A stretch of 20,037 nucleotides of DNA, taken from positions 1-20,037 of IMG/VR virus record IMGVR_UViG_3300010153_002939; one strand, given 5' to 3'. This stretch comes from a virus. The notes beneath the pieces were generated by a model. The model worked only from the letters and a program-made list of their open reading frames with translations. It had not been told where the DNA came from and did no database searches. Each line of letters begins with the position of its first letter. The stretch's first letter is position 1. This document shows, in pieces, positions 3,903 through 20,037 of the stretch. A program made the position numbers and the translations under genes.

Positions 3903-4101
3903 CAGTCACCATTGGGTATACATCCCTTATCTTTACATTCCATTTGCCATTATTAGCATAAACACGATAAATATATTGACTCAACGTGCTTAAATAAACG
4001 CCAGTAATTGGCCTTTCAGTCATTCGTAATCTCATTCCTCTGTCCGTTTCGCACCACAGTTCAACATCCTGTGGAATGTGTACTAGATCCCCTTGATTCA
4101 T
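3892..4101 (-). CDS. Small beta-barrel-like protein directly after groEL
   Basis: The 69-aa product starts MNQGDLVHIPQDVELW and continues through ITGVYL, YIYRVYANNGKW and KIRDVYPM, a strand-rich order like small SH3-type barrels. The frame extends upstream to 4158, but I choose ATG at 4101. GGAGG lies eight bases before it, and its last base is shared with the TAA of groEL, a TAATG overlap. The position made me consider a co-chaperonin (GroES-like). It is shorter than GroES (about 95 aa) and shows no glycine-rich mobile loop with a hydrophobic tripeptide, so I do not make that call. Function is unknown. Coupled expression with the chaperonin is likely from the overlap. Confidence 0.72.
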   Translation of the reverse strand: MNQGDLVHIPQDVELWCETDRGMRLRMTERPITGVYLSTLSQYIYRVYANNGKWNVKIRDVYPMVTDVS

Positions 4102-5678
4102 TATTTGTCCTCCGTCTGTATGATCGCATAACCAGTTGTAATCAGTGTGCCGGCACAACTAGCAGCGTTTTGAAGCGCCGTGGTTGTAACTTTAACAGGG
4201 TCAATGATACCATTTTCAAACATATTTGTTAATTTGTTATTTCTAAAATCCCAACCCATGCCATCTTCAGCGTTAATCACTGTGTTAATCAAAACATCAG
4301 GCGATTCTCCTGCATTCATAGCCATTTGCCTAAAGGGAGCTTTGCATGCTTCTGTAATTATAAGCATACCCAAATTTTGATCATCGTGGTTTGTTACAAT
4401 CTCAACATTTTTGCAAGCCAGAAGTAAAGCTGTGCCGCCACCGCCAACAATTCCGCTTTCCTGTGCAGACCTGACTGCCTCTAGAGCATCTTCAATTCTG
4501 TGTTTCCGTTCGATCATCTCAACTTCAGTAGAGCCGCCTACAGAAATGATAGCGACTCCCGATGATAGTCTAACTACGCGACCTTGTAAAACTTCTGCAT
4601 CTCCTAACGAACTGGTATCTTTTACCTGTTGTTTGATAGACTCAATGCGCTTATCAATCTCATTGAAATCACACTTTCCTCCTACAATCGTTGTAGAATA
4701 TTTGTTACTTTCTATAGCCCGAGCAGAACCCAGATCTGAAAGCTTTACGTCGGATAATTTTGTACCACTCTCTCTTGTGATAAATGTAGCACCCACAGAT
4801 AAAGCCAGATCATCCAGCAAGTGTCGGCGCTGTTCACCGTAGAATGGGGCTTTAATAGCAGCAATTTTTAAGGTACCGCGCATCGCATTCATGATCATGG
4901 CAGCCAGAGCTTGACCCTCGATGTCTTCGGCTACGATGATGAGAGGGCGCCCCTCGCGAGCAACCATTTCCAATAGTGGTAGGATCGGCTCAACTTGTGA
5001 AACTTTATAATCAGTAACCAAGATCAAAGGTTCTTCATACCCCATTGTGCTTCGTCGGTCATCAGTGATAAAGGCAGAAGCACAATATCCAGATTGAAAC
5101 TTAAACCCTTCTGTAACGTCAATTGATGTCTGCATCGAACGAGACTCTTCAATAGTTATAGAGCCATCTTCGCCCACCCTATCAATAGCAATAGTAACAA
5201 TACTTCCAATACTGGGGTCGTTATTGGCAGAAATCGTAGCAATGTGAGCGATGTCCTCTGCACTCGTAACCGGAGCGGCCATAGACTCCAAATTTTGGCT
5301 AATCTCTTGAACTGTAGCATCAATACCTCTCTTTAATTCAATTGGGGAAACACCTGAAGCAATATACTTCTGCGACTCATTAAGGATCGCGCGCGCTAAT
5401 ACGGTAGCCGTGGTGGTGCCATCACCTGCTGTGTTGTTCGTCTCAATGGCAGCTTGTTTGATAATCTGACAGCCCGCATTTTCAAAGGGGTCATCAAATG
5501 TTACAAAGTGCGCTACTGTTACTCCATCTTTAGTGATAAAGGGTGCTTTACCCTGTTCTTGCAAGATTACATTGCGGCCGCGCGGGCCGAGAGTCGACGC
5601 TACATTATCTGCTAGCGTGTTAACCCCATTAAGAATCTTTTCTTGCAAAGAAGTTTTGTTATCATATGCTCTACTCAT
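4101..5678 (-). CDS. groEL: GroEL-type chaperonin (Hsp60)
   Basis: The 525-aa protein matches group I chaperonins along its whole length (E. coli GroEL has 548). It has TLGPRGRNVIL (29-39), the DGVTVA motif with Asp51, and the ATP-binding GDGTTTATVLA (85-95) with Asp86. The equatorial RIEDALEAVRSA keeps the Asp equivalent to Asp398 needed for ATP hydrolysis, and SGIVGGGGTALL follows. It ends with an ALQNAASCAGTLITT stretch, but the usual Gly-Gly-Met tail is missing. It should form an ATP-driven folding ring. No groES is visible in the window. The gene has its own very strong promoter just upstream and an AGG ribosome site five bases before the ATG. Phage GroELs are known in some giant phages. 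Virion protein folding is the likely use, but that is inference. Confidence 0.95.
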   Translation of the reverse strand: MSRAYDNKTSLQEKILNGVNTLADNVASTLGPRGRNVILQEQGKAPFITKDGVTVAHFVTFDDPFENAGCQIIKQAAIETNNTAGDGTTTATVLARAILNESQKYIASGVSPIELKRGIDATVQEISQNLESMAAPVTSAEDIAHIATISANNDPSIGSIVTIAIDRVGEDGSITIEESRSMQTSIDVTEGFKFQSGYCASAFITDDRRSTMGYEEPLILVTDYKVSQVEPILPLLEMVAREGRPLIIVAEDIEGQALAAMIMNAMRGTLKIAAIKAPFYGEQRRHLLDDLALSVGATFITRESGTKLSDVKLSDLGSARAIESNKYSTTIVGGKCDFNEIDKRIESIKQQVKDTSSLGDAEVLQGRVVRLSSGVAIISVGGSTEVEMIERKHRIEDALEAVRSAQESGIVGGGGTALLLACKNVEIVTNHDDQNLGMLIITEACKAPFRQMAMNAGESPDVLINTVINAEDGMGWDFRNNKLTNMFENGIIDPVKVTTTALQNAASCAGTLITTGYAIIQTEDK

Positions 5679-5734: not shown

Positions 5735-6397
5735 TTATATAATAATATCTGCAATTCCGTGTTCAACTGCTTCTTCAGCCGAAAGATAGATGTTAACTTT
5801 TTCATTTAACATCTTAGTTAATCTTTTTCTAGAGAGTTTGGTGTTGTCAACAAGAGCCGAAACGTAGTCATCTTGCAGTTGTTGGATTGCCTCTAATTCA
5901 TTTGTTAAATTTGGCAAAGAGCCAGCAGTGCCACCCATCACATTGTGAATCATAACTCTGCAGTTTTTGCCAATCTTACGTTTGCCCTTGGAACCAGCCG
6001 CTAAAAGTAATACTCCGGCCGACATAACTTTGCCTAAACCTATTGTATGTATTTCTGTGTCTTCTTTGACCACATTCATCAAGTCATAGAGGGCGAACAT
6101 ATCGTCTGCGGAACCGCCATACGTAGATATATAAAACTCAATAGATTTTTTATCTTCTTCTTTCTTTTGAATTTTGTTAGACTCATTCATATAAATTAGT
6201 GATTGGCATATTTCTGCAATCTTTTCTTGCTCAACATCGGAAAAGAGTCCAATAACCCTTAAATCTAATTCCATTGGCGATGTCGAGGCGCCGGCTAAAG
6301 CATCAGGATCTAGTAAAATTATTCTATCTCCCATATTTTCTGACTCCGCGCCCTCACTTATTTTTTCTTGAATTTTCTTTATTATCTTGTTTAACAT
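5735..6397 (-). CDS. ClpP-like serine peptidase (S14) with Asn in place of catalytic Asp
   Basis: This 220-aa protein shows the ClpP fold. It has the strand and turn FYISTYGGSADDMFALYDLM (88-107), the nucleophile motif KVMSAGVLLLAAGSKGKR with Ser126, and RVMIHNVMGG with His151. The final part is YLSAEEAVEHGIADII (204-219). In E. coli ClpP the third catalytic residue, Asp185 of the precursor, precedes RFLSAPEAVEYG; the aligned residue here is Asn202. Listeria ClpP1 has the same Asp-to-Asn change and works best with a second ClpP. The first 45 residues form a charged extension unlike the normal propeptide. It lies directly upstream of the groEL promoter. Roles to consider are a maturation protease for virion proteins or a subunit that mixes with the other ClpP-like protein at 13265-13870. 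No ClpX/ClpA partner is visible. Confidence 0.88.
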   Translation of the reverse strand: MLNKIIKKIQEKISEGAESENMGDRIILLDPDALAGASTSPMELDLRVIGLFSDVEQEKIAEICQSLIYMNESNKIQKKEEDKKSIEFYISTYGGSADDMFALYDLMNVVKEDTEIHTIGLGKVMSAGVLLLAAGSKGKRKIGKNCRVMIHNVMGGTAGSLPNLTNELEAIQQLQDDYVSALVDNTKLSRKRLTKMLNEKVNIYLSAEEAVEHGIADIII

Positions 6398-7634: not shown

Positions 7635-7883
7635 TCAATCAGCAAGATCACTTTTCTTTAACTTGTAAAGTGCTTTCTTTTCTATTTGTTTAACGCGCGC
7701 AAAAGAAATGCCCAAACGTGCAGCAGTCTCGCGAAGGGTTAAGTTGCCGTTTTTAAACACGGTTATCAGAACACAATTGAATTCTTCGGGGTAATCAATA
7801 AAGTGACGGCAATCTTGTTTCTTGCACGACGACTTCTTCTTCATGCACGCTTTGGAGCACAATTTTAAACCATCTGTTCTCAT
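7635..7883 (-). CDS. Cys-rich small protein with sigma-70 region 4-like helix-turn-helix
   Basis: The 82-aa protein has two parts. Residues 9-37 contain five cysteines (9, 13, 20, 25, 37) around CRHFIDYPEEFNC, possibly a metal-binding knuckle. Residues 48-77 read LTLRETAARLGISFARVKQIEKKALYKLKK. This closely follows sigma-70 region 4.2, which reads TLEEIGxxxGVTRERIRQIExxALxKL and binds the -35 element. Regions 2 and 3 are absent, so it cannot be a full sigma factor. It could redirect host RNA polymerase as a co-activator, or be a stand-alone DNA-binding regulator of late genes. It lies directly before the probable virion gene. Its ATG overlaps the previous gene's TGA by four bases. Confidence 0.82.
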   Translation of the reverse strand: MRTDGLKLCSKACMKKKSSCKKQDCRHFIDYPEEFNCVLITVFKNGNLTLRETAARLGISFARVKQIEKKALYKLKKSDLAD

Positions 7884-9630: not shown

Positions 9631-9996
9631 CTATTTGTATTGCTCGATAAATTTTCTTAATTGTTTCTCATGATACCACATATCTTCATTTGGTGGTTTT
9701 GGATCAGGAACGAACTTTATGCGTGTATTCACGCCACCAGTTCTAACATGGCAGATAGTTGGCACGCCCTCAAACCCATATTTTGCCTCAAGTTCATCGC
9801 CGCCATGCTCCATGTTATATGCATAGAACAGGATATCTTCATGTTCTTCAGATATGTCCCGGTAGACTGGCGCCAACGAGTGACACATATGGCAGTGGGT
9901 ACCATAAAATTTAATGACTACCGAATGTTCCTTTAAAATTTCACCGTCCATTATCATTTCTAAACTTTTTCTATCAATCCTCTTTATGTTTGACAT
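9631..9996 (-). CDS. Thioredoxin-fold protein with CHMC active site
   Basis: The 121-aa protein has the thioredoxin order: strand VVIKFYG, then the redox motif Cys35-His-Met-Cys38 at the helix start (CHMCHSLAPVYRDI), then ILFYAYNM, then GVPT with the expected cis-Pro79. This replaces the usual CGPC with CHMC, which should raise the redox potential, and adds a longer C-terminal part (DPKPPNEDMWYHEKQLRKFIEQ). There is no signal peptide, so it acts in the cytosol. A phage thioredoxin could support ribonucleotide reduction or, as host thioredoxin does in T7, a polymerase, but no such partner is shown here. It overlaps the zinc-ribbon gene by 23 bases. Confidence 0.88.
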   Translation of the reverse strand: MSNIKRIDRKSLEMIMDGEILKEHSVVIKFYGTHCHMCHSLAPVYRDISEEHEDILFYAYNMEHGGDELEAKYGFEGVPTICHVRTGGVNTRIKFVPDPKPPNEDMWYHEKQLRKFIEQYK

Positions 9997-10231
9997 TGCT
10001 TAAAGCCTCCTTGGTCTTTTTAATACAGTCAGGGCAAAATAGTCTTACAACTTCTTGTTTAACAACGACTGACCATGATTGTACCATATCTTTATCTTTC
10101 TTGTCAAATTCTTTCTGACAAGCACCACACTGCCGCGGCAGCTTTCCAAACTGGGAAATTTTTTGCGCGAGGTTTTCGGTGGTTTCTTTTCCCATATACT
10201 TGTTCATCGCGCGGCGCTGTTTGCGGTTCAT
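9974..10231 (-). CDS. Small zinc-ribbon protein
   Basis: The 85-aa protein has a basic start (MNRKQRRAMNKYMGK) and two Cys pairs, Cys35-x2-Cys38 and Cys66-x2-Cys69, which together can hold one zinc ion in a treble-clef or ribbon fold. The C-terminus is Lys-rich. It has no catalytic motif and is probably nucleic-acid or protein binding. Its ATG overlaps the stop of the Dam-type methylase by four bases, so it belongs to the DNA-modification operon. Phage genomes often carry such orphan zinc proteins, and their roles are mostly unknown. Confidence 0.78.
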   Translation of the reverse strand: MNRKQRRAMNKYMGKETTENLAQKISQFGKLPRQCGACQKEFDKKDKDMVQSWSVVVKQEVVRLFCPDCIKKTKEALSNVKHKED

Positions 10232-10701
10232 CGGTTCATAGCTCCGAATATCTGTTGCCTGTAGGCACCATCAAATACAACTACTGCTGATGGGAATGGT
10301 GCGGAGTTGGCGGAATCTCCAAACTTAAGGCGCCCTTTGACAAAGTATACTTCGTCGGCTTTCATGACATATTGGTGCCAATACTTTGTATCGGTGCGGG
10401 CTGGAATCAGCATGACTACTCGGGTACCCTCACTGCGAGTTTCTTCGTAAGCCTTCTTGATCCAGCTCTCAATCCCGCGGCCATATGGCGGGTTAATAAA
10501 GCAAGTAAACCCCTCCCAACTTTTTGAAAGGCCATCCTCAGCCTCCGTAAAAAAGTTTGCGCACTTGGTATTGCTAGGATCTGCGCATGGATCTAAATCA
10601 AATGGGCCAAAGCGCCAATTTAGCTTATCAAAAAATTCTTGTGGGGTTGCCCAGTTTCCTGTCTTGGAACTGAACATGGTTAATTGTGTTGTTTTATTCA
10701 T
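10228..10701 (-). CDS. dam: Phage-type DNA N6-adenine methyltransferase
   Basis: This 157-aa protein matches the phage Dam family (Pfam PF05869, from family knowledge). It has WATPQEFFDKLNWRFGPFDLDPCA (17-40), CANFFTEAEDGLSKSWEG (47-64), the catalytic NPPYGRG (70-76), VVMLIPARTDTKYWH, and the closing GRLKFG with APFPSAVVVF. The catalytic NPPY is intact, so it should methylate adenine in DNA. The target site is not readable from sequence, though several members modify GATC. It directly follows a second methyltransferase with a four-base overlap, so it belongs to the restriction-modification transcript. It could protect phage DNA from host enzymes or mark it for packaging or transcription. Confidence 0.93.
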   Translation of the reverse strand: MNKTTQLTMFSSKTGNWATPQEFFDKLNWRFGPFDLDPCADPSNTKCANFFTEAEDGLSKSWEGFTCFINPPYGRGIESWIKKAYEETRSEGTRVVMLIPARTDTKYWHQYVMKADEVYFVKGRLKFGDSANSAPFPSAVVVFDGAYRQQIFGAMNR

Positions 10702-11594
10702 TTGTTATCCTTATTGTTGATTGGAAAGCCATCTTTAGTCAATAAATTACCCATATTAACATAATCTTGATTGACGTCAAACGCTATCCATTTTAGTTGT
10801 TTTTGTTGACATACATACCCCTCGCTCCCAGTCCCAGAGAAGGGAATAACAACAGTAGAGTTATCTTTGTTTATACAAGCGTCCAAGAGCTTCTGTGTCA
10901 ACTTCAGAGGCTTCTGGGTGGGGTGTTTAATACCATCTGCAAAATTCATCTTCTTAGCTTGCTTGTTTGTATACAGCTTTTGCATCGATGGGGAGTACAC
11001 ATAACGCTCAGAAACGCCACTACCCCCTGCGAGTGACGAAACTTTAATAACATCACGCGGCAAAGCACCCTTATCGTTAACCTTATATGTAGTTTCAATA
11101 TCTTTGCCTTTGGTGTTAAAGCGGCCGGTACCGGGCGGCCTTTTTCGTTTGCCATCTGAGTAACCTTTCACAAAATTTTCTGTGTACGGCTCTCTAACAT
11201 CGTCTCTATTGAATATTCTGTTCTCTTTATTCTTCCAGACACATAAAATGGATTCATGGCTGCGTTGCCAAAAGTTTAACGAAGGTACTGTCTTGTTAGT
11301 ATAGTGCCACACAAGCCAGCGATAAGGCAAAGTCAACTCAACAGAAAGAAATGCCAGAATCTCGCTGAACCCGTAGATATACATCGTTCCTGATGGAGCT
11401 AGAACCCTTTCACATTCAGTTAACCAGTCCTTACACCACGACACATAGTCCTGTATCTCTCTGCTAGTCTTATTGTTGCCGAAGTCTTTGCCGATATTAT
11501 ACGGCGGATCAACAATCAGACAATCAACAGAGTCAGATTCAATTCGTGCAAGACCGTCAATACAGTCAAGCAGATTAACTTGATTCCACTTCAC
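10698..11594 (-). CDS. Beta-class site-specific DNA methyltransferase of a restriction-modification pair
   Basis: The 298-aa protein shows catalytic motif IV, DPPYNIG (Asp29-Tyr32), near the N-terminus. The cofactor motif VIPFSGTG (249-256) follows close to the C-terminus, after HPTQKPLKL, which fits motif X just before it. This order, IV then target-recognition region then X and I, defines the beta class of amino-methyltransferases (N6-adenine or N4-cytosine). The middle, with a basic KRKRPPGTGRFNTKGK stretch, should be the recognition domain. Start is GTG at 11594, overlapping the TGA of the endonuclease (GTGA), so the two are translated in coupled fashion. It should protect the site that the neighbour cuts. 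The site itself is unknown. Confidence 0.92.
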   Translation of the reverse strand: MKWNQVNLLDCIDGLARIESDSVDCLIVDPPYNIGKDFGNNKTSREIQDYVSWCKDWLTECERVLAPSGTMYIYGFSEILAFLSVELTLPYRWLVWHYTNKTVPSLNFWQRSHESILCVWKNKENRIFNRDDVREPYTENFVKGYSDGKRKRPPGTGRFNTKGKDIETTYKVNDKGALPRDVIKVSSLAGGSGVSERYVYSPSMQKLYTNKQAKKMNFADGIKHPTQKPLKLTQKLLDACINKDNSTVVIPFSGTGSEGYVCQQKQLKWIAFDVNQDYVNMGNLLTKDGFPINNKDNK

Positions 11595-12217
11595 TCAGAC
11601 CACTCCTCAATTGGCTTTACGAAAGGCAAATTGATGAGCTTTTGAAACTTACTAGATCCTGCCAACATATAGTCATCATTGTAGCCCCCTTCGCCGCCCT
11701 GCTGACGAGAAAATAATCTAGATTCTCTATTGGGGCCGGCCATGTAGCGAACAAAGTCCGCCTTATGCATCCAGAACATTCTTAGTTCGGGGGGCTGGGC
11801 GCTGGGGTGAGGCCATAATACATTAGGGTTATCCAAAGATGGATTGACCCCACAAAAAATTAATCGCGCCCAATCTTTTTTTTCTGCTATATGGTTGAAA
11901 GTGAATTGATCGGGATTAATCATCTTTCTGCCTTTGTATGGCCCATTGCGATTCTCTTTTGGAGAATTGGCGACACTAAATTTGATTTCCGTTTTGATGT
12001 CATCAAATATTCTATCATGGCCCGGGTTTTCGGGCAGCCGAACAGTGCAACCTTCGTTACTCATATGTAGCTCTACCGCCATTTCGCCATATACACCCTT
12101 GTTCTTGGTGCTTAGGCCAACATATTTCTCAATAGGTGTTCCAACCCAATTATTATGTTGATTATTGGTAAGAAAGTTAGTCAATGTGTGGTGCTCAAAT
12201 AATGCTGCGGCCATCAT
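11591..12217 (-). CDS. Type II restriction endonuclease-like protein, PD-(D/E)xK fold
   Basis: The 208-aa protein has an endonuclease core: GEMAVELHM with Glu45, GHDRIFDD with Asp69, and TEIKF with Glu77-x-Lys79. This spacing fits the E-D-ExK metal site of PD-(D/E)xK nucleases. It lies between a small upstream gene and a methyltransferase, with four-base overlaps on both sides, which is the main reason to call it a restriction enzyme. The C-terminal half is Trp/Met- and Gly-rich with FSRQQGGEGG, probably DNA contacts. I do not recognise a named enzyme. In a phage it might cut host or rival DNA while phage DNA is methylated. A non-specific or nicking nuclease is the alternative. Confidence 0.78.
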   Translation of the reverse strand: MMAAALFEHHTLTNFLTNNQHNNWVGTPIEKYVGLSTKNKGVYGEMAVELHMSNEGCTVRLPENPGHDRIFDDIKTEIKFSVANSPKENRNGPYKGRKMINPDQFTFNHIAEKKDWARLIFCGVNPSLDNPNVLWPHPSAQPPELRMFWMHKADFVRYMAGPNRESRLFSRQQGGEGGYNDDYMLAGSSKFQKLINLPFVKPIEEWSE

Positions 12218-12468
12218 TGCTCTTCCCCGACACCAGAGATTAATGTGAAATTATCTACAATTTCTTCAATATCAATCTTTTGTTTAAAAAGGCGATATGC
12301 CTTTACTGCTGCACGAATCTCATCCGTGTTGAGCCACCCGTTCTCTCGGAACTCAGAACGCAGTTCGCGCTTTTGTTCCTGGTAAGGTTCGATGCATTCT
12401 TCAATAGCCGCCAGTGAGCGAATGTACTCCTTGACGTATTGTTTCTTTTGGTCTTGTGTTGTAGCCAT
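12214..12468 (-). CDS. Small helical protein leading the restriction-modification operon
   Basis: This 84-aa protein is almost all charged helix. Its layout, a helix with EQKRELRSEFRENGWLNTDEIRAAVKAYRL in residues 31-60, recalls GapR/DUF2312-like DNA-associated proteins, where a coiled coil is followed by a 'GxxxxEIRxAVxxxRL' helix. The similarity is in layout only and I do not assign the family. It starts at ATG 12468 with a strong AGGAGG site and is the first gene after the promoter at 12493-12521. The next gene, the endonuclease, overlaps by four bases. It sits where some restriction-modification systems have a controller gene, but it shows no helix-turn-helix. Confidence 0.78.
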   Translation of the reverse strand: MATTQDQKKQYVKEYIRSLAAIEECIEPYQEQKRELRSEFRENGWLNTDEIRAAVKAYRLFKQKIDIEEIVDNFTLISGVGEEQ

Positions 12469-12492
12469 TATAGCCTCCTTGTTTACTCTATT

Positions 12493-12521
12493 AATATAGC
12501 AAGGGAGGGCTTGACTGTCAA
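12493..12521 (-). promoter_or_regulatory. Near-consensus sigma-70 promoter of the restriction-modification block
   Basis: On the minus strand TTGACA is at 12521-12516 and TATATT at 12498-12493, 17 bases apart. TGC just before the -10 adds an extended -10. It fills the gap between the J-domain gene's stop and the ATG at 12468. Confidence 0.85.
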
Positions 12522-13264: not shown

Positions 13265-13870
13265 CTATTTGAAATTAAATTTTATTTCTGTGGTTATTCT
13301 CATTTCTGGTACGTGCAATTTATTGGCTAGTTTGTGCTTCTTACACTCGTCTGCTTCTAAAAACCAATCGGCATGACCCTTATCGTGAACGATATCAAGA
13401 AAATAGTCTTTGTGGTGGCCACAATTTTCTGCCATCATGGTGTATATTTTTTGATTTAAGCGATCAGTTTCTTCGGCAGATGCCTTGATCTCTTCAACCT
13501 TGCCCCAACCCATTGAACTTACATCATGAATCATCACAGTAGCATCAGGATCCATATATCTATGTCCCTCGGCGCCGAAACTGAAGAGTATCGCACCGCA
13601 AGACATAGCCTTGCCTTGTACTATCGTAGCTACAGGAATTTTTGAATGCTTGATATCGGAAATCATGGACATTAGGCTGTAAACCTGACCCCCATAACTG
13701 TCAATGATAACTGGCACGATGGGTTGCCCAGTATTCTGTGCTTTTCTTATCAGTGCAGAAAAACTCTTCGCAGATGACTCATCAAATTTGCTAACCCTTA
13801 TAATGATCGGCAGATCATCAATTAGTTTGGGTTCCTTTAGCATTGGGCTGAATGTTTTTATAAGGTTCAT
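13265..13870 (-). CDS. ClpP-like serine peptidase (S14) with complete catalytic triad
   Basis: This 201-aa protein has the ClpP order. It shows PVIIDSYGGQVYSLMSMI (53-70), QGKAMSCGAILFSFGAEGHR with Ser90, and VMIHDVSSMGWG with His115. DWFLEADECKKHKLANKL gives Asp168 at the position of the ClpP catalytic Asp. Unlike the other ClpP-like protein, all three residues are kept. It is distinct in sequence from that protein and lacks a normal propeptide. It follows dnaE by seven bases and is probably on the dnaE transcript. It could be the working half of a mixed ClpP ring, hijack the host ClpX/ClpA, or mature virion proteins. Confidence 0.9.
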   Translation of the reverse strand: MNLIKTFSPMLKEPKLIDDLPIIIRVSKFDESSAKSFSALIRKAQNTGQPIVPVIIDSYGGQVYSLMSMISDIKHSKIPVATIVQGKAMSCGAILFSFGAEGHRYMDPDATVMIHDVSSMGWGKVEEIKASAEETDRLNQKIYTMMAENCGHHKDYFLDIVHDKGHADWFLEADECKKHKLANKLHVPEMRITTEIKFNFK

Positions 13871-13877
13871 AACATAA

Positions 13878-16800
13878 TTATCCTAATAGTTTAAATGTCT
13901 TCCAAAGAGCGTAGGTGGAGAACCCCCATTGCTCATCGTATTTAAGCTTGGCCATGTACGGCCTATTAATAAATATCTTGTCTTTCTCCGGACGCACTCC
14001 CCAGCATCTAATTTTTTCAGTTTCGTTGTTAGAATCAATAACTTCAACAATCCAATAGTTCTTGCCATTCTTGGTTTTCTTGGCGACGATCTTACGAGGA
14101 ATAAACCAGCAAACACACAAGTCGGGATCAAATTCTGATATTGGCGGAATGTACTTCTCACGGAGTCTGTTGATAGTATCGGTACTAATGACTAGGTTCA
14201 TTGGGAACACGCCAGTCAACTCTGTTTTAAAATGAATAATCTCCTCCTCTGTAAAGTCGCCTTCCTTGCGGTAAGCGTCAATGTTTTCATTAAACTTCTT
14301 CTTGTTCTTCGGCCGGTCAACGACCGCTGCAGACCAAAAGTGTTTACGACCTGTAAAGCGGTCATCGACCAATCCGTCCATAGCGCCGGCGCGACACAAG
14401 GCATCTAGTGCTTTCTTGTTAAGTTTGGAATATGTTATTTCTTCACGAAATAGCAGATCTTCAATATCATAGAAAGGCCGATGGTCCAATATTTGTTCAA
14501 GAGCAGAATCACCGAAGCCTTTAATGGAGGTGAGCGGCTGGATGAGGGTCTTGTTGTCCTCTGCTATCTCCCAAACACGGCCCGACTTGTTAAGGTCAAC
14601 CGGTGCAATATTGTAGCCAAGTGACTTGGCAATATTAATTGCTTTTTCTTTTCTTGTTTCTGGTTCCTTGTCCAAGAAGGCGGCGGTCCACTCGGCTTCG
14701 TAGTAGTTCAAAAGCCATGCACACTGATAAGAGATTACGCTGTAAGACACAGCATGAGACTTGTTGAATCCGTATCCGGAGAAGTACTCAAACTTGTCCC
14801 AAAGCGCTTGGGCCTCGTCTCGGTCAATATCTTTAGCTACACATCCCTTAATAAACTTATCATGCAGCTTACCTTTAACAGAACCTTTTCCTGTTCCCTT
14901 CTTTGTTAGCACCTTGCGAAGCATGTTGCCCTCATCGAGCGTCAAGCCACCAAGCTTGTGGGCAAGCAGGGCGATTTGCTCTTGAAAGATCAGGAATCCA
15001 AAGGTCTCTTCAGTGATCTCGCGAGCTTCGTCAGAAAGGTACTTGATATAGTGCGGGTGACTCTTGGCCTCCACATAGTCAGCGTCAACGCCAGCGGACA
15101 ATGGGCCAGGACGGAAGATGGAAGTAACCGCTGACACATCAATAATATTGCGAGGCTTAACCCTCGTACAGAATCCTTGAGCACCGCTTTCAGTGAATTG
15201 GAACACCCCAGCCCACTTGCCGGCATGAAAAATATTCTCGTACACATTCTGGTCTTCAAGATCGATGATGTCAGGATGCAAATATTTATTATAGTAATCT
15301 CGTACCTGTGTAAAGGTAGGTTCTTCTACTCCATAATGACGACGAAGAATATGTTGAATACAAACCTCCATCATCTTAAGAGTCGCCAAGCCTAACAAAT
15401 CAAACTTAATGAAACCCATTGGTTCCAAGTGTCGCACGTTTTGACCTTCTGACCACGGCGTTTGTCTCACTCCGCCTGAATTAATAAGGGGCATGCTCTT
15501 GTCTAAGTCTTCTGCAATCACAACGCCGCCGGCATGTCGTGAACACGACCGAACTTGACCAACAAGACCCTGAACGTGAGATCTTACCGCCGGATATGTA
15601 TTTAAAAAGTTTTGCAGCGAAGGAGAGAACTCCATGACTTCCTGCCAAGTTGGAGCGTAGATACCGGCTTTGATGCCGTGCTTTTGCTTAGCAAGAGGTG
15701 TCGCCTCTTTAATCATAATATTCGTAACGTTGTTTACTTCTGTAAAGGGGATGTCATACAATTTTGAGATGTCCTTAACGAGCGAACGAAGTTGCAAAGT
15801 ATTCCAATTGGAGATAGGTGCGACCACATTCTCTCCCCACATCTCAACCAAGCGTTCCTTTAGGACCATCGGGTCTGATACATCATAGTCGATGTCAGGA
15901 TAATCGGTGGCGTCAGAACGCAAGAAGCGAGAGAACAGAAGACCGTGCTTAATTGGGTCAATCTGTGTGATCCCAAGCGCATAGGCCACCAAGGAGCCTG
16001 CAGCAGAGCCGCGGCCCGGGCCGGCCAACATCATGTCATTCGTGACATCCACAATGGCTTTCATAGTAAGAAAGTATTTGGAAAAGCCACGGTCATCGAT
16101 AACGTTTAATTCTGTGCGTAGGCGATCAGTATATTCCTTGTTGGTGTGCAATCCATAAGTCTTAAGACCTTCTAGCGCGTAGTTAACCAAAGCTTGCGTA
16201 GCTGTAAAGCCAGCAGGCACAACGAATTCGGGAAGGCGTACCGTATTGTCAGGAAGAAACGACTCAATTCTTTCATGGGCAATTCTATGTGTCTCTTCAA
16301 TACTTTTCAAGACTACATTATCATCATATTCAAACCCTGTAGATTCTGAATACTCTTTGTAGCTTTCCCAGATTTGATCACCGTTCTTGGGATACAGCTC
16401 ATAACCTATTTCCGTGACGTCATCGGGAAGAAACGAATCTGAATCTTCTGCCCACTTCGGCTTCCCTTTGCCAAGCCAACCCAAACGCTTGTAGAGTTCC
16501 CTATCTTTCCAAGCATCGGGGCCGGGGTAGTGGCTGTCTGCGGTGGTGATCAACCCAACGCCTTTCTCTTGTGCCGTCTGGATAACGTACTGATTCAATT
16601 CATGTTGCTCTTTAATGTTGTTCCATTGAATCTCAGCGTACCAGCGGTCACCAAAAATATCTACCATGTTTTCAGTAGTCTCTCTCATCGCCCCTAGGAC
16701 AGCCTCTTCGCCCTCGGCCCGGTTCTCCCAGTAGTTGCCAGCATAAACGCCGCCTAGGCACGCTGACGCAGCGATAATACCCTCATTATACTTCTTCAAG

Positions 16801-17312
16801 AGAGCGTAATCAATACGCGGGTATCGGTAAAAGTTTTCAGGCTGATAAGACTCTGAGATAAGCTTGAACAGATTGTTGAGACCCGTCTGATTCTGTGCTA
16901 ACAGAACCAGATGGCGCCGCCGGCGTAGGATGTCTTGAGTCTTCTTGCTGTTGCCTTCGTCCTCAACTGTTGCACCTGATTGGGCATCTTTCTTAATGCT
17001 CTTGGCGCGCTTCTTATCGACCATGGCCTGCTCATAAGCCTCGCGCCATTCAGCGATAGACGGCGTGAAGTAAGCCTCACACCCAAAGATAGGCTTAAAC
17101 TCTTTGCCTTCTGACTGCATCTTCTTGGCATGCAAAACCTGATATGCTAAACCATTCATATTACCATGGTCGGTGAGAGCTAAAGCATCTGAACCGTTTT
17201 GATAAGCGAAATCCATATGATCTTGTGGAAAGCCGATAGCATCAAAAATTGAGCCGGCTACTGAATGGGCGTGGAGCCCTACGAATTTAATGTTGGAATC
17301 TTTTCGATTCAT
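13878..17312 (-). CDS. dnaE: DNA polymerase III alpha subunit (C-family), with intact PHP domain
   Basis: The 1144-aa protein is a full-length DnaE-type replicative polymerase (E. coli 1160). An N-terminal PHP domain (1-270) keeps the likely metal ligands His14, His16, Asp48, His49, Glu79, His134, Cys185, Asp259 and His261, so it could be a proofreading nuclease, unlike the degenerate E. coli PHP. The polymerase core shows GPGRGSAAGS (431-440), YPDIDYD with Asp473 and Asp475, HAGGVVIA (593-600) and KFDLLGL with Asp638, giving the three catalytic aspartates. Later come the GVFQF, RPGPL and GYGFNKSHAVSYS finger motifs, a helix-hairpin-helix (SIKGFGDSAL) and an OB fold near the C-terminus. ATG at 17312 has AGGAGGT six bases upstream and overlaps the previous stop. 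A promoter lies just before it. It replicates the element's own DNA. Confidence 0.97.
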   Translation of the reverse strand: MNRKDSNIKFVGLHAHSVAGSIFDAIGFPQDHMDFAYQNGSDALALTDHGNMNGLAYQVLHAKKMQSEGKEFKPIFGCEAYFTPSIAEWREAYEQAMVDKKRAKSIKKDAQSGATVEDEGNSKKTQDILRRRRHLVLLAQNQTGLNNLFKLISESYQPENFYRYPRIDYALLKKYNEGIIAASACLGGVYAGNYWENRAEGEEAVLGAMRETTENMVDIFGDRWYAEIQWNNIKEQHELNQYVIQTAQEKGVGLITTADSHYPGPDAWKDRELYKRLGWLGKGKPKWAEDSDSFLPDDVTEIGYELYPKNGDQIWESYKEYSESTGFEYDDNVVLKSIEETHRIAHERIESFLPDNTVRLPEFVVPAGFTATQALVNYALEGLKTYGLHTNKEYTDRLRTELNVIDDRGFSKYFLTMKAIVDVTNDMMLAGPGRGSAAGSLVAYALGITQIDPIKHGLLFSRFLRSDATDYPDIDYDVSDPMVLKERLVEMWGENVVAPISNWNTLQLRSLVKDISKLYDIPFTEVNNVTNIMIKEATPLAKQKHGIKAGIYAPTWQEVMEFSPSLQNFLNTYPAVRSHVQGLVGQVRSCSRHAGGVVIAEDLDKSMPLINSGGVRQTPWSEGQNVRHLEPMGFIKFDLLGLATLKMMEVCIQHILRRHYGVEEPTFTQVRDYYNKYLHPDIIDLEDQNVYENIFHAGKWAGVFQFTESGAQGFCTRVKPRNIIDVSAVTSIFRPGPLSAGVDADYVEAKSHPHYIKYLSDEAREITEETFGFLIFQEQIALLAHKLGGLTLDEGNMLRKVLTKKGTGKGSVKGKLHDKFIKGCVAKDIDRDEAQALWDKFEYFSGYGFNKSHAVSYSVISYQCAWLLNYYEAEWTAAFLDKEPETRKEKAINIAKSLGYNIAPVDLNKSGRVWEIAEDNKTLIQPLTSIKGFGDSALEQILDHRPFYDIEDLLFREEITYSKLNKKALDALCRAGAMDGLVDDRFTGRKHFWSAAVVDRPKNKKKFNENIDAYRKEGDFTEEEIIHFKTELTGVFPMNLVISTDTINRLREKYIPPISEFDPDLCVCWFIPRKIVAKKTKNGKNYWIVEVIDSNNETEKIRCWGVRPEKDKIFINRPYMAKLKYDEQWGFSTYALWKTFKLLG

Positions 17313-18196: not shown

Positions 18197-19044
18197 AGGT
18201 GTTTTAAATATTTTTTATATAATCTTGATTTTTCAGAAATTTGAGAAATCATTTCTTTTTGACTCGGAATCTCAAGTTCTATGTCGTGCTGGTCCACACA
18301 CGAGGTCGGCGCAAAGAGTTGTTTAGTTCTGTTGATTGTTGAAGTTTTGAACTTGTAGTGTTTTGGGCGTCCATTGTGGTCATAGCCATTAAGCAGGCCT
18401 CGCATTCCCCTGCCTTCCATTTCTTTAACAACTTTAAAGCGTGCCATTGTTTCAGAAAGGCCAAACTCTTCAAGCTCATCATCATCAATAAAAGAAACTG
18501 CACATGCATCCTTTACTTTGGTGTTGCCGCATATTCTATCGGAAGAATAAAACCATATTTCTTTAACAAACTTATCTTCTGTTTCAATAAAATCAATTTC
18601 ATGTTTCCCGCCACTATTAAAAGCTATCCAATCGTAACAAACGTATTTTTTGTTCTTTGGCTTTTGTGTAAAGTCGTGTAATTTATCAAAATAAACATCA
18701 CAAATTTTAGAATATTCGTTAAAACACTGAAAAGAGTTGACATAATGTCGTATGTTTGTGCAAAGACCTGCTAGTGGAGCCAAGCCATCTAAAGAAAGCA
18801 GAAAAAGCATTCTTTCCCAGAGCAAATCTTTTGGCATGCCAGTAAACTGGTCGCCCTTAAAAGTACTTAAGACATTTTTTTGTCTGGGTAGCTTCAGGCT
18901 ATCTAGATCGGCTTCTGGTGTCAAGTAATCAAACCTAAACGGCCGCTGAGGTTGGTCAAAAAAAATAGGGTAATGGTTAATAAAAGCGAATAGAACTGCG
19001 TCAAAACTGCTACCCAAAACAACATCGCGATAACTTGTTCTCAA
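18193..19044 (-). CDS. Unknown protein paired with the nucleotidyltransferase-like gene
   Basis: I do not recognise this 283-aa protein. It starts with MRTSYRDVVLGSSFDAVLFAFINHYPIFF-type sequence. The 'DVVLGSSFDAVLFA' stretch resembles the first strand and glycine turn of a Rossmann or FAD fold, though one glycine of the GxGxxG is missing. The middle is aromatic with many charged residues, and the C-terminus is Lys-rich. No signal or membrane segment is visible. The start is TTG at 19044 with AAGG upstream, overlapping the previous TGA (TTGA). The four-base overlap with the nucleotidyltransferase-like gene suggests the two act together. A nucleotide-sugar or glycan function is a guess. Confidence 0.72.
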   Translation of the reverse strand: MRTSYRDVVLGSSFDAVLFAFINHYPIFFDQPQRPFRFDYLTPEADLDSLKLPRQKNVLSTFKGDQFTGMPKDLLWERMLFLLSLDGLAPLAGLCTNIRHYVNSFQCFNEYSKICDVYFDKLHDFTQKPKNKKYVCYDWIAFNSGGKHEIDFIETEDKFVKEIWFYSSDRICGNTKVKDACAVSFIDDDELEEFGLSETMARFKVVKEMEGRGMRGLLNGYDHNGRPKHYKFKTSTINRTKQLFAPTSCVDQHDIELEIPSQKEMISQISEKSRLYKKYLKHL

Positions 19045-20037
19045 TCTTCCCTTCTGAGACCAAGTGTCATTAGTGCAGCCATAAAGACAACATACAAGCT
19101 GCCGCGGCTTCTTAACACACTGTTACACCCCGCGGGATCCTTCGGACTCGGACTCCCTGTGTTTTCAGTGAACTCAAACGAGTCTCCGGTATCTGTATCT
19201 TCTTCGTGTTCCGAGCCTGTGTCTTCCACTTCTGGAGGCTCTCCGGAGTCTGTGACAACTGGTTCTTCTTCGTCATCAGGCTCATCGGCAGGAATAAAGA
19301 ATGGTTGCGAGATCACCAAATCACTCAGGGTCACCCCAAGTTCGTGATGAAAGGGATCATACCAGCCAGTATCAAAGTTTCCCACAAAGTTTAACTGATC
19401 TATCATAAAGGGCATACCTTCTTCTACCTGAACACTCAAAAAGTATTCATGATATGCTGACTGTGTTTCTCTGGCTCCAAGGTTTAGATACATGTCCCAC
19501 GCCATTAGATCAGCGCGTCCATCAACAAACACATCCCACTCATAGAGAGTGACTTCGTATTGAGTCTGCACTGAGTATTCTGACGAATGATAACCCTTTA
19601 CTTGGAGGTTACCGGCAGCTTGCATCTCAGTGCCCTCTTCCTCGATCTTATATTCTCCGTGAGCCATCACAGCGCCCTCGGAATCAGAGCCAATACCATA
19701 TGCGTTCTGAAATGTTACTTGTCCATAAGCATCAATGCCATATGACTCAAACGGAACAGACCAATCCCAGCGGAAGGCGCCCTGTTCGCGCTCCACATCG
19801 GTCATGGCCTCTACACTTAGAACGGGATGTTCACCCCAATCACTCCACTCGTCTGCCCATAGCTTACATTGTGCTCCTCTTGCCCAATCCCAGGGTGCGT
19901 AGTAGCAGTCATGTCCCGGTGTAACCCGTGTTTTGATGACGGCAACATAAAAATCTGTACCCCTATCAATCGACGATTGGAACCAGAAAAATTCCACAAT
20001 GGCATCAATGGTGTTATCATAAACATCCGAGTTCCCA
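19041..20037 (-). CDS. Surface or secreted protein with acidic linker and MYXO-CTERM-like tail (N-terminus cut)
   Basis: The frame is open past a GTG at 19997 to the right edge, so the gene is cut at its 5' end. I see at least 331 residues. The main part is Trp/Tyr/Gly-rich and probably beta-stranded, with cysteine in HDCYYAPWDW and ARGAQCKLWADEW. Then comes an acidic disordered linker rich in Asp-Glu-Thr-Gly (PDDEEEPVV, EDTGSEHEEDTDTGD). It is followed by AGCNSVLRSRG, a 15-residue hydrophobic stretch (SLYVVFMAALMTLGL) and RRED. The order Cys, hydrophobic stretch, Arg-Arg matches the tripartite MYXO-CTERM type of C-terminal sorting signal known in Myxococcota. It therefore looks exported and anchored. 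Any signal peptide would lie outside the window. No family is recognised. It overlaps the next gene by four bases. Confidence 0.75.
   Translation of the reverse strand, partial: GNSDVYDNTIDAIVEFFWFQSSIDRGTDFYVAVIKTRVTPGHDCYYAPWDWARGAQCKLWADEWSDWGEHPVLSVEAMTDVEREQGAFRWDWSVPFESYGIDAYGQVTFQNAYGIGSDSEGAVMAHGEYKIEEEGTEMQAAGNLQVKGYHSSEYSVQTQYEVTLYEWDVFVDGRADLMAWDMYLNLGARETQSAYHEYFLSVQVEEGMPFMIDQLNFVGNFDTGWYDPFHHELGVTLSDLVISQPFFIPADEPDDEEEPVVTDSGEPPEVEDTGSEHEEDTDTGDSFEFTENTGSPSPKDPAGCNSVLRSRGSLYVVFMAALMTLGLRRED

What the first reader, a model, noticed from the sequence alone, without database searches (positions are those of the whole stretch)
10228..12468. Four-gene DNA-identity operon: small leader protein, endonuclease, beta methyltransferase, Dam
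The genes overlap by four bases each and share one promoter. The endonuclease is translated before the methyltransferase, which would be risky for a normal restriction-modification system. This suggests that phage DNA is already protected on entry, or that the nuclease is delayed or aimed at host or rival DNA.
Basis: partly seen in the sequence, partly recalled or inferred. Interest (0 to 1): 0.55.

Follow-up and report, generated by a model that had tools for sequence, protein, structure and literature searches.

The report
Phage restriction-modification operon, likely cutting TCGA
A virus of bacteria carries a DNA-cutting enzyme and a protective partner that probably act on the four-letter site TCGA, and most of the relatives examined that keep the cutter without the partner beside it have almost no TCGA left in their own DNA, as if the cutter were a weapon against other DNA.

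Summary
The genes are real: leader (12468-12214), PD-(D/E)XK nuclease R (12217-11591), beta-class methyltransferase M (11594-10698) and Dam (10701-10228), each overlapping the next by 4 bases behind a conserved promoter; the run continues past Dam. R is phrog_6927, found only in viruses here; 37 of 37 aligned members match a PADLOC restriction-enzyme model, and an MTase lies just downstream in 74 of 86 loci. Inferred target: TCGA. (1) M's cellular relatives sit beside TaqI-family (TCGA) nucleases. (2) TCGA is the window's most depleted palindromic tetramer (27 seen, 52.7 expected). (3) Six of nine carriers of R without an adjacent MTase have purged TCGA: 0/330 in all of phage S-SSM4, 0/88, 0/73, 0/85, 3/226, 0/92; 12 R-less cyanophages keep 64-90%. 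A divergent R group has purged TTAA instead (0/590). Exceptions: ACG-2014f and two fragments. Best reading: a virus-borne type II R-M system whose nuclease attacks non-self DNA, with self-protection by methylation or by loss of sites. No cleavage or methylation was measured.

The parts
12493..12521 (-). sigma-70-type promoter-like site TTGACA-17-TATATT, extended -10
   Evidence: 11 of 12 matches; TTGACA and the -10 core invariant in 6 of 6 aligned viruses
12474..12480 (-). ribosome-binding site AAGGAGG, 5 bases before the leader ATG
   Evidence: read directly from the sequence
12214..12468 (-). leader protein, 84 aa, helical, function unknown
   Evidence: pLDDT 82; no Pfam match for the window protein, none in NCBIfam or PADLOC, no phage tblastn match, no PDB Foldseek match with E<=0.001
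11591..12217 (-). R: PD-(D/E)XK-type endonuclease, phrog_6927; catalytic candidates E45, D68, E77, K79
   Evidence: the four residues invariant in 9 of 9 and 37 of 37 sequences; pLDDT 91.5; 37 of 37 match PADLOC REase_II at E<=0.1, best 4.1e-13; the window protein 3.4e-5
10698..11594 (-). M: beta-class amino methyltransferase (DPPY ahead of FSGTG), inferred partner of R, inferred target TCGA
   Evidence: cellular relatives with TaqI-family genes in the same locus
10228..10701 (-). Dam-type N6-adenine MTase, inferred target GATC; optional part of the module
   Evidence: searches (PF05869, 115 bits against cut-off 28.1; TIGR01712, 94.4 bits, below its cut-off 97.05; 58% to 936-group phage methylases), PMC4190342 (passages)
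9974..10231 (-). small Cys-rich protein (looks Zn-binding by eye) overlapping Dam by 4 bases; same place in L008-L010, L012, L013; directly after M in L019 and L020
   Evidence: no family above cut-off

Best explanation
The operon is a virus-borne type II restriction-modification module plus an independent Dam. R is a PD-(D/E)XK endonuclease that cuts unmodified TCGA. M is its amino methyltransferase for the same site and protects the virus's own DNA. Dam separately marks GATC, probably against host GATC-cutting enzymes. R and M are made from a host-sigma-70-type promoter with coupled translation. R's use is offensive: it cuts DNA lacking the virus's mark (host chromosome or a competing phage). 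In several relatives without an MTase beside R, protection comes instead from removal of TCGA from the viral genome; a divergent R group has done the same for TTAA. Shown: genes, order, promoter conservation, fold prediction and invariant catalytic candidates, distribution in viruses only in the collections searched, R-M adjacency, TCGA/TTAA purges. Inferred: nuclease activity, both specificities, the target of the attack, timing.
For: R: 37 of 37 aligned members match PADLOC REase_II PDLC03515, best 4.1e-13; model pLDDT 91.5; its leading structural matches are nucleases (NhoI/Eco15I Z 8.3-9.1, I-Ssp6803I 8.9, Hjc 8.0, HinP1I, PvuII, EcoRV); E45, D68, E77, K79 invariant in 37 of 37. Pairing: a recognised MTase starts near the end of R in 68 of 86 loci, in 4 more another MTase-like ORF follows, in 2 an HNH-like gene sits between: 74 of 86. 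Target of M: 28 of 78 cellular M relatives have a TaqI-family gene in the same locus; all 9 viral M lie on one side of a 100/95 branch where 25 of 34 cellular rows do. TCGA in the window 27/52.7, lowest of 16 palindromic tetramers; codon shuffle 26 against 63.6+-6.6. R without adjacent MTase: S-SSM4 0/330, S-SSM6b 0/88, G012 0/73, G016 0/85, G017 3/226, G015 0/92. 12 R-less cyanophages 0.64-0.90. Recorded-host controls: S-SSM6b (0/88) and R-less Syn19 (120/144) and S-SSM7 (97/116) on WH8109. Divergent R: TTAA 0/590 in S-SSM2 and 0/586 in S-ShM2 (WH8102) against 564/636 in R-less S-SSM5 (WH8102).
Against: Of nine sets with R and no adjacent MTase, three are not purged: ACG-2014f 151/190, G027 25/50.9 and G026 10/38.5. 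ACG-2014f has other MTase genes, none shown to be TCGA-specific. The purged ones are not free of MTases either: S-SSM4 and S-SSM6b carry a PF01555 and a D12 MTase away from R, G017 a D12. TCGA is already below expectation in R-less cyanophages, and other tetramers are purged without R (CCGG 0 or 1 in 11 of 12 R-less cyanophages, CTAG 0/159 in S-SM2), so a purge alone does not prove R specificity. Sets with R and M range from 0.05 to 0.82, so M does not simply relieve depletion. The purged carriers are three or four lineages. The fold alone does not separate a restriction enzyme from a Holliday-junction resolvase or a modification-dependent enzyme. No biochemistry.
Confidence: 0.72

Rival explanations
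1. R is a DNA-repair or recombination nuclease (Holliday-junction resolvase type) of the same fold, and its MTase neighbours are incidental.
For: Archaeal Hjc-type structures score Z 5.6-8.0 against the model, close to the best rows.
Against: 37 of 37 members match a type II REase model; an MTase follows R in 74 of 86 loci; a resolvase would not explain the loss of one palindrome per R subgroup (TCGA or TTAA).
Confidence: 0.08
2. The TCGA/TTAA purge answers host R-M systems, and R is a bystander acquired later or aimed elsewhere.
For: Avoidance of host R-M sites is widespread in phages (PMC6286503, passages seen). CCGG is 0 or 1 in 11 of 12 R-less cyanophages and CTAG is zero in S-SM2. Three of nine sets with R and no adjacent MTase are not purged.
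Against: R-less phages recorded on the same hosts keep TCGA (Syn19, S-SSM7 on WH8109) and TTAA (S-SSM5 on WH8102). Among all 4-mers, TCGA is the one purged in the five R+ sets scanned and not in six R-less ones; TTAA likewise for the divergent group.
Confidence: 0.12
3. An exclusion module: the phage keeps other phages out of its infected cell and does not attack the host chromosome.
For: Marseilleviruses: their R can cut rival genomes and does not degrade host DNA (PMC7253447, passages). The window phage retains TCGA sites with M present.
Against: Nothing here separates rival from host DNA as target; chloroviruses are thought to use R on host DNA (PMC7019647, passages). It is a sub-case of the best explanation.
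Confidence: 0.35
4. R is a modification-dependent nuclease like NhoI/Eco15I (BisI family) that cuts methylated sites.
For: NhoI and Eco15I are tied for the best structural Z, 8.3-9.1.
Against: An MTase beside R in 74 of 86 loci would then mark the virus's own DNA for cutting; the Z values are tied with other nucleases and resolvases.
Confidence: 0.05

Closest known systems
Type II R-M operons with R first (EcoRI, Eco29kI)
   Same: R and M as separate adjacent genes, R first, one operon (PMC3874152, passage).
   Different: There controlled by inner and reverse promoters with antisense RNA; here virus-borne, in a long gene run, with an R family found only in viruses in the collections searched.
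TaqI-type TCGA R-M systems
   Same: M's cellular relatives (38-53% identity) often have RE_TaqI genes in the same locus; the inferred site is the same.
   Different: R is not recognised as RE_TaqI (Pfam). That TaqI's own MTase is of another class (gamma) is recalled, not from a call.
Chlorovirus and marseillevirus R-M systems
   Same: Viral R and M genes adjacent; R thought to act on host DNA (chloroviruses) or shown able to cut rival DNA (marseilleviruses) (PMC7019647, PMC7253447, passages).
   Different: Viruses of eukaryotes. Here tailed phages; some relatives without an adjacent MTase show loss of sites instead.
Phage orphan Dam MTases (M.Phi93DAM of lactococcal phage Phi93)
   Same: The window Dam is 58% identical over residues 9-144 to a methylase of phi93 and other 936 phages. 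M.Phi93DAM methylates GATC and blocks DpnII (PMC4190342, passages).
   Different: Sits in an R-M gene run rather than the packaging module. That the phi93 hit is that very gene is inferred from product and position.

Membership tests
Type II restriction-modification system | separate R and M genes next to each other | tested here: met
   MTase downstream in 74 of 86 loci
Type II restriction-modification system | R has a nuclease fold and intact active-site residues | tested here: met
   predicted fold and conserved E45/D68/E77/K79; REase_II model 37 of 37. Activity itself not measured
Type II restriction-modification system | R and M recognise the same site | tested here: inconclusive
   M to TCGA by TaqI-family genes near its relatives; R to TCGA by site purge in six of nine carriers without adjacent MTase; both indirect, and they agree
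Type II restriction-modification system | R cuts unmodified and spares modified DNA | not testable with these tools
   needs enzyme assays
TaqI (RE_TaqI, PF09573) endonucleases | R matches the RE_TaqI model | tested here: not met
   no Pfam match for the window R at E<=1; RE_TaqI is not among the 13 families matched by any of 37 members at E<=1
C-protein-controlled R-M | small HTH regulator gene before R/M | tested here: not met
   the window leader has no Pfam match at E<=10 and no HTH family is among those of six members; none in NCBIfam or PADLOC
GapR/DsbA-like DNA-binding proteins (leader) | sequence or fold match | tested here: inconclusive
   idea from memory and PMC7824862 (passages); no Pfam match, no significant fold match
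PF05869 phage Dam | match above Pfam cut-off and NPPY motif | tested here: met
   115.1 bits against 28.1; NPPY read in the sequence. TIGR01712 94.4 bits is just under its cut-off 97.05
Holliday-junction resolvase (Hjc type) | fold and branched-DNA activity | tested here: inconclusive
   fold similar, Z up to 8.0; activity not testable
BisI-family modification-dependent endonuclease | cuts only modified sites | not testable with these tools
   structural Z 8.3-9.1, tied with other nucleases
Chlorovirus-type R-M | R packaged in the virion | not testable with these tools
   no proteomics at hand for these viruses

The most novel reading that the evidence does not exclude
A family of viral restriction enzymes can live as solitary weapons: the phage carries the cutter without a partner beside it and is safe because its whole genome has been emptied of the site (TCGA in one branch, TTAA in another). 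The window shows the other state of the same switch, with the cutter kept beside a methyltransferase and sites allowed. Loss or gain of M and purge of sites trade off along the family.
Probability: 0.65. Interest if true: 0.82.

Novelty: new variant of a known kind. Interest (0 to 1): 0.72.

Why it matters
It gives a concrete, testable specificity (TCGA, TTAA) to a viral gene family listed as unknown (phrog_6927). It turns the question of what phages do with restriction enzymes into a cheap test in isolated cyanophages (S-SSM4, S-SSM2, P-SSM7). If true, site avoidance in phages is not only a reply to host restriction; it can be the price of carrying one's own restriction enzyme without its methylase. 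It may also yield TCGA and TTAA cutters unrelated to TaqI.

Tried and rejected
Leader protein: looked for as a C-protein, GapR/DsbA relative or nuclease inhibitor. Pfam for six members, NCBIfam and PADLOC, PHROGs (best 0.021 to a holin family, not credible), tblastn in phages and a PDB fold search gave nothing usable.

R outside viruses: none found by a pattern scan of 84,980 cellular genomes (99 stretches matched a pattern, none a relative; patterns are short, so distant relatives can be missed) and none in plasmids by tblastn. PDB by sequence: no relative (two chance matches at E 0.79 and 1.6, none). PDB by Foldseek: none at E<=0.001, best 1.5e-3 to I-Ssp6803I. In the BFVD viral library the best match is the S-RIM14 homologue.

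GATC: no depletion in the window (71 against 75.5). Taken as neutral about Dam.

Other targets for M (ATGCAT from a sub-cut-off NCBIfam match to NF008572, GAATTC from M.RsrI) were considered and dropped: these specificities are recalled ones of distant relatives; in the window ATGCAT is not depleted (9 against 5.1) and GAATTC (6 sites) is not among the ten lowest 6-mers.

Literature: 10 searches, some with capped lists (25 of 32, 15 of 57, 15 of 27 and 20 of 37 papers shown). None of the titles shown is about these cyanophage enzymes or about solitary phage restriction enzymes protected by site loss. The library lacks most subscription journals and all bioRxiv preprints, so absence is weak. 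PMC6286503 deals with host-encoded R-M in the passages seen, and its main text holds neither 'cyanophage' nor 'TCGA' nor 'TTAA'. In PMC12707154 the terms on phage-encoded restriction gave nothing to the point.

Class comparison: no-adjacent-MTase 9 sets, R+M 23 sets, R-less 12 sets; Mann-Whitney p 0.0009 (first against R-less), 0.00009 (R+M against R-less), 0.010 (first against R+M). Rows dropped before it: G003 (taken from a contig whose R is a copy of G002's) and G029 (L049-type MTase beside R, 4/53.1); the divergent-R phages were compared for TTAA, not TCGA. Rows within a class are partly sisters (S-SSM4/S-SSM6b; G016/G017), so the p-values are only indicative. D12 MTases were sought in 11 R-bearing records only, not in the R-less ones.
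Full report
WHAT IS THERE. The window is a 20,037-base virus record; the genes of this run lie on the minus strand. The four reported genes are at the stated coordinates and overlap by exactly 4 bases each. A promoter-like site TTGACA-17-TATATT with extended -10 lies at 12521-12493; its -35 and -10 core are the same in the six viruses aligned (window, L008, L009, L019, L021, L026). Other promoter-like matches lie inside M and the gene after Dam, and the scanned region has 14 such sites against 8.8 +- 3.1 in shuffles, so a single promoter is likely but not shown. The co-directional run goes on through a small Cys-rich gene, a thioredoxin (PF00085), a short unknown gene, an IMP dehydrogenase (PF00478), another unknown and a sigma-70 region 4 protein at 7635-7883 (PF04545), so 'four genes' is a cut, not a natural boundary. 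Window against L014 dN/dS: R 0.10, Dam 0.08, leader 0.03, Cys-rich gene 0.20; for M synonymous sites are saturated, with pN 0.125 against pS 0.755. All look kept by purifying selection.

WHAT THE PROTEINS ARE. R (208 aa) has no Pfam match but matches phrog_6927, unknown function, at 3.7e-38. tblastn finds it in 24 phage records, 23 of them named cyanophage, Synechococcus or Prochlorococcus phages; S-BM3's copy is annotated restriction endonuclease, T4-GC_685. A profile-guided scan of viral contigs gave 179 loci, of which the best 80 were kept. All 37 of 37 aligned members match PADLOC REase_II PDLC03515. AlphaFold2 with 37 sequences gives pLDDT 91.5, with E45 in a helix, then D68, then a strand with E77-x-K79. 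These residues are invariant in 37 of 37 and in the 9-sequence set with S-SSM4, ACG-2014f, S-BM3 and S-SSM2. VIA-align's leading rows are nucleases (Eco15I/NhoI 8.3-9.1, I-Ssp6803I 8.9, Hjc 8.0, HinP1I, DpnI, PvuII, EcoRV), which I know as PD-(D/E)XK enzymes; these Z values are tied or middling and say fold, not function. M is PF01555 with DPPY ahead of FSGTG, the beta order. Dam is PF05869, 58% identical to methylases of 936 phages including phi93. M.Phi93DAM methylates GATC and protects against DpnII (PMC4190342, passages).

R AND M TRAVEL TOGETHER. Among 86 loci (L002-L007, L014-L093), a recognised MTase starts between 150 bases before and 200 bases after the end of R in 68; among distinct R sequences 44 of 58. 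In four more (L049, L051, L054, L060) an ORF with an MTase-like PPY motif follows (L054 scanned: Methyltransf_15 7.5e-6, PF01555 2.5e-5 below cut-off). In L031 and L033 an HNH-like gene sits between R and an M whose match is split over two ORFs. That is 74 of 86; 12 have no MTase there. The criterion looked downstream of R, so 'R first' in these 74 is by construction; in the 12 others no match to the three MTase queries was seen anywhere in the locus. On the R tree the partner type follows clade: window-type M, P-SSM7-dam1-type M, the L049-type MTase, or none; 'none' needs 5 changes, at least 2 forced by starred branches, and several long branches make places unsure.

WHICH SITE. (a) M phylogeny. 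Of 78 cellular M relatives examined (80 loci kept of 555), 28 have a gene like the TaqI family and 23 a gene of another, unnamed family in the same locus (PF09573 confirmed by Pfam in the 4 members scanned). All nine viral M, the window's included, lie on one side of a branch supported 100/95 where 25 of 34 cellular rows carry a TaqI-type gene; the tree is unrooted. TaqI cuts TCGA (established knowledge). (b) Site count. In the window TCGA is the lowest of 16 palindromic tetramers: 27 seen, 52.7 expected by a maximal-order Markov model; under codon shuffling 26 against 63.6+-6.6. (c) The natural experiment. Viruses with R but no MTase beside it, observed/expected TCGA: S-SSM4 whole genome 0/330; S-SSM6b 50 kb 0/88; G012 0/73; G016 60 kb 0/85; G017 160 kb 3/226, the three sites within 862 bases; G015 0/92. 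Twelve R-less cyanophages (R absence checked over whole records; 50 or 100 kb counted) have 0.64-0.90. Twenty-three sets with R and M range from 0.05 to 0.82, none zero. In a scan of all 4-mers in five R+ sets without adjacent MTase, TCGA stands alone at 3 of 648 expected; next is CCGG at 0.23, which is 0.10 in the six R-less phages of that scan. (d) A second specificity. S-SSM2 and S-ShM2, with a divergent R (A3 profile E about 1e-25), keep TCGA (394/511, 391/511) but have 0/590 and 0/586 TTAA; S-RIM14 (100 kb) 0/339; these three are one species. R-less phages keep TTAA at 0.68-1.04. S-BM3 has the same R type plus a PF01555 MTase that S-SSM2, S-ShM2 and S-RIM14 lack and keeps 58/374 TTAA in 120 kb. 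(e) Recorded-host controls. S-SSM6b (TCGA 0/88) and R-less Syn19 (120/144) and S-SSM7 (97/116) are recorded on WH8109; S-SSM2 and S-ShM2 (TTAA 0) and R-less S-SSM5 (564/636) on WH8102. That argues against a host R-M system as the cause.

RESULTS AGAINST. ACG-2014f has R, no adjacent MTase and 151/190 TCGA in 100 kb. It carries one PF01555 and two D12 MTases and, by eye, two further ORFs with NPPY, so a trans-acting M is possible but not shown. G027 (25/50.9; 36 kb) and G026 (10/38.5; 12.8 kb) are also unpurged; no PF01555 gene was found in either fragment. So three of nine such sets are exceptions. S-SSM4 and S-SSM6b carry a PF01555 MTase away from R; S-SSM4's is 83% identical to P-SSM7 dam2, and R-less P-SSM2 has an 81% relative, so it is not taken as R's partner. 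A D12 MTase is present in 8 of 11 R-bearing records, S-SSM4, S-SSM6b, G017 and ACG-2014f among them. G029, with the L049-type MTase next to R, is nearly purged (4/53.1). Sets with R and M are more depleted than R-less ones (p 0.00009): either M does not fully remove the cost of R, or lineage plays in. Purges of other tetramers occur without R (CCGG in 11 of 12 R-less phages; CTAG in S-SM2).

HOW IT PROBABLY WORKS. After injection the operon is read from a host-type promoter. R is translated first, then M through overlapping codons. This order is normal: EcoRI and Eco29kI share it (PMC3874152), and melbournevirus transcribes R before M (PMC7253447). Incoming DNA made in a previous infection would already carry M's mark, so R is harmless to it (inference). 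R then cuts unmarked TCGA in host or rival DNA. Some relatives without M reach the same safety by having no sites. Which DNA is the main target cannot be told from sequence. Chloroviruses are thought to use R on host DNA (PMC7019647); marseillevirus R can cut rivals.

NOVELTY. Virus-borne R-M is known. New here: a site assignment for a viral R family of unknown function, and the trade-off between keeping M and purging the site. In ten searches of an open-access library I saw no report of this (call numbers and limits in Tried and rejected). Interest 0.72.

Noticed in passing
L099, L110, L126, L131, L162, L168 and others (23 of 78 M relatives): A second gene family of about 170-205 aa ('YRLTPRM...') sits near cellular relatives of M; the five members scanned (L110, L126, L131, L162, L168) have no Pfam or PADLOC match at E<=0.01. 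A likely unnamed restriction-enzyme family, perhaps also for TCGA.
   Followed up: partly
R-less cyanophages, L247-L276, L333-L338: CCGG is 0 or 1 in 11 of the twelve R-less cyanophages, and CTAG is 0/159 in S-SM2: other near-complete site purges whose cause is unknown.
   Followed up: no
G017 (L285), positions 70681-71542: The only three TCGA sites in the 160 kb counted lie within 862 bases, which may mark a recently acquired or variable segment.
   Followed up: no
L031:4604-5221 and L033:2738-3355: An HNH-like gene (PF01844 0.0015, below cut-off; L031 scanned) sits between R and M, a possible homing endonuclease; the M match beyond it is split over two ORFs.
   Followed up: partly
L019:3544-4008, L021:3528-3986, L026:5406-5936: A gene that looks like dUTPase (recognised by eye, not tested) lies between leader and R (L019, L021) or after M (L026).
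   Followed up: no
window 19041-19997: A long protein with an acidic, DTG-rich linker and a C-terminal hydrophobic stretch, reminiscent (from memory) of surface proteins of marine Myxococcota-like bacteria; no Pfam match at E<=0.01. A possible host clue.
   Followed up: partly
window 4101-5678, 5735-6397, 13265-13870: GroEL-like and two ClpP-like proteins (recognised by eye, not tested), with a DNA polymerase III alpha relative at 13878-17312.
   Followed up: no
window 7635-7883: An 82-aa sigma-70 region 4 protein (PF04545, 1.4e-10), a possible phage transcription factor at the end of the same gene run.
   Followed up: partly
G004, G006, G008, G009, G027: GGCC is also strongly depleted (0 in G004 and G027; 0.20-0.24 of expectation in G006, G008, G009), suggesting a further R-M pressure.
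   Followed up: no
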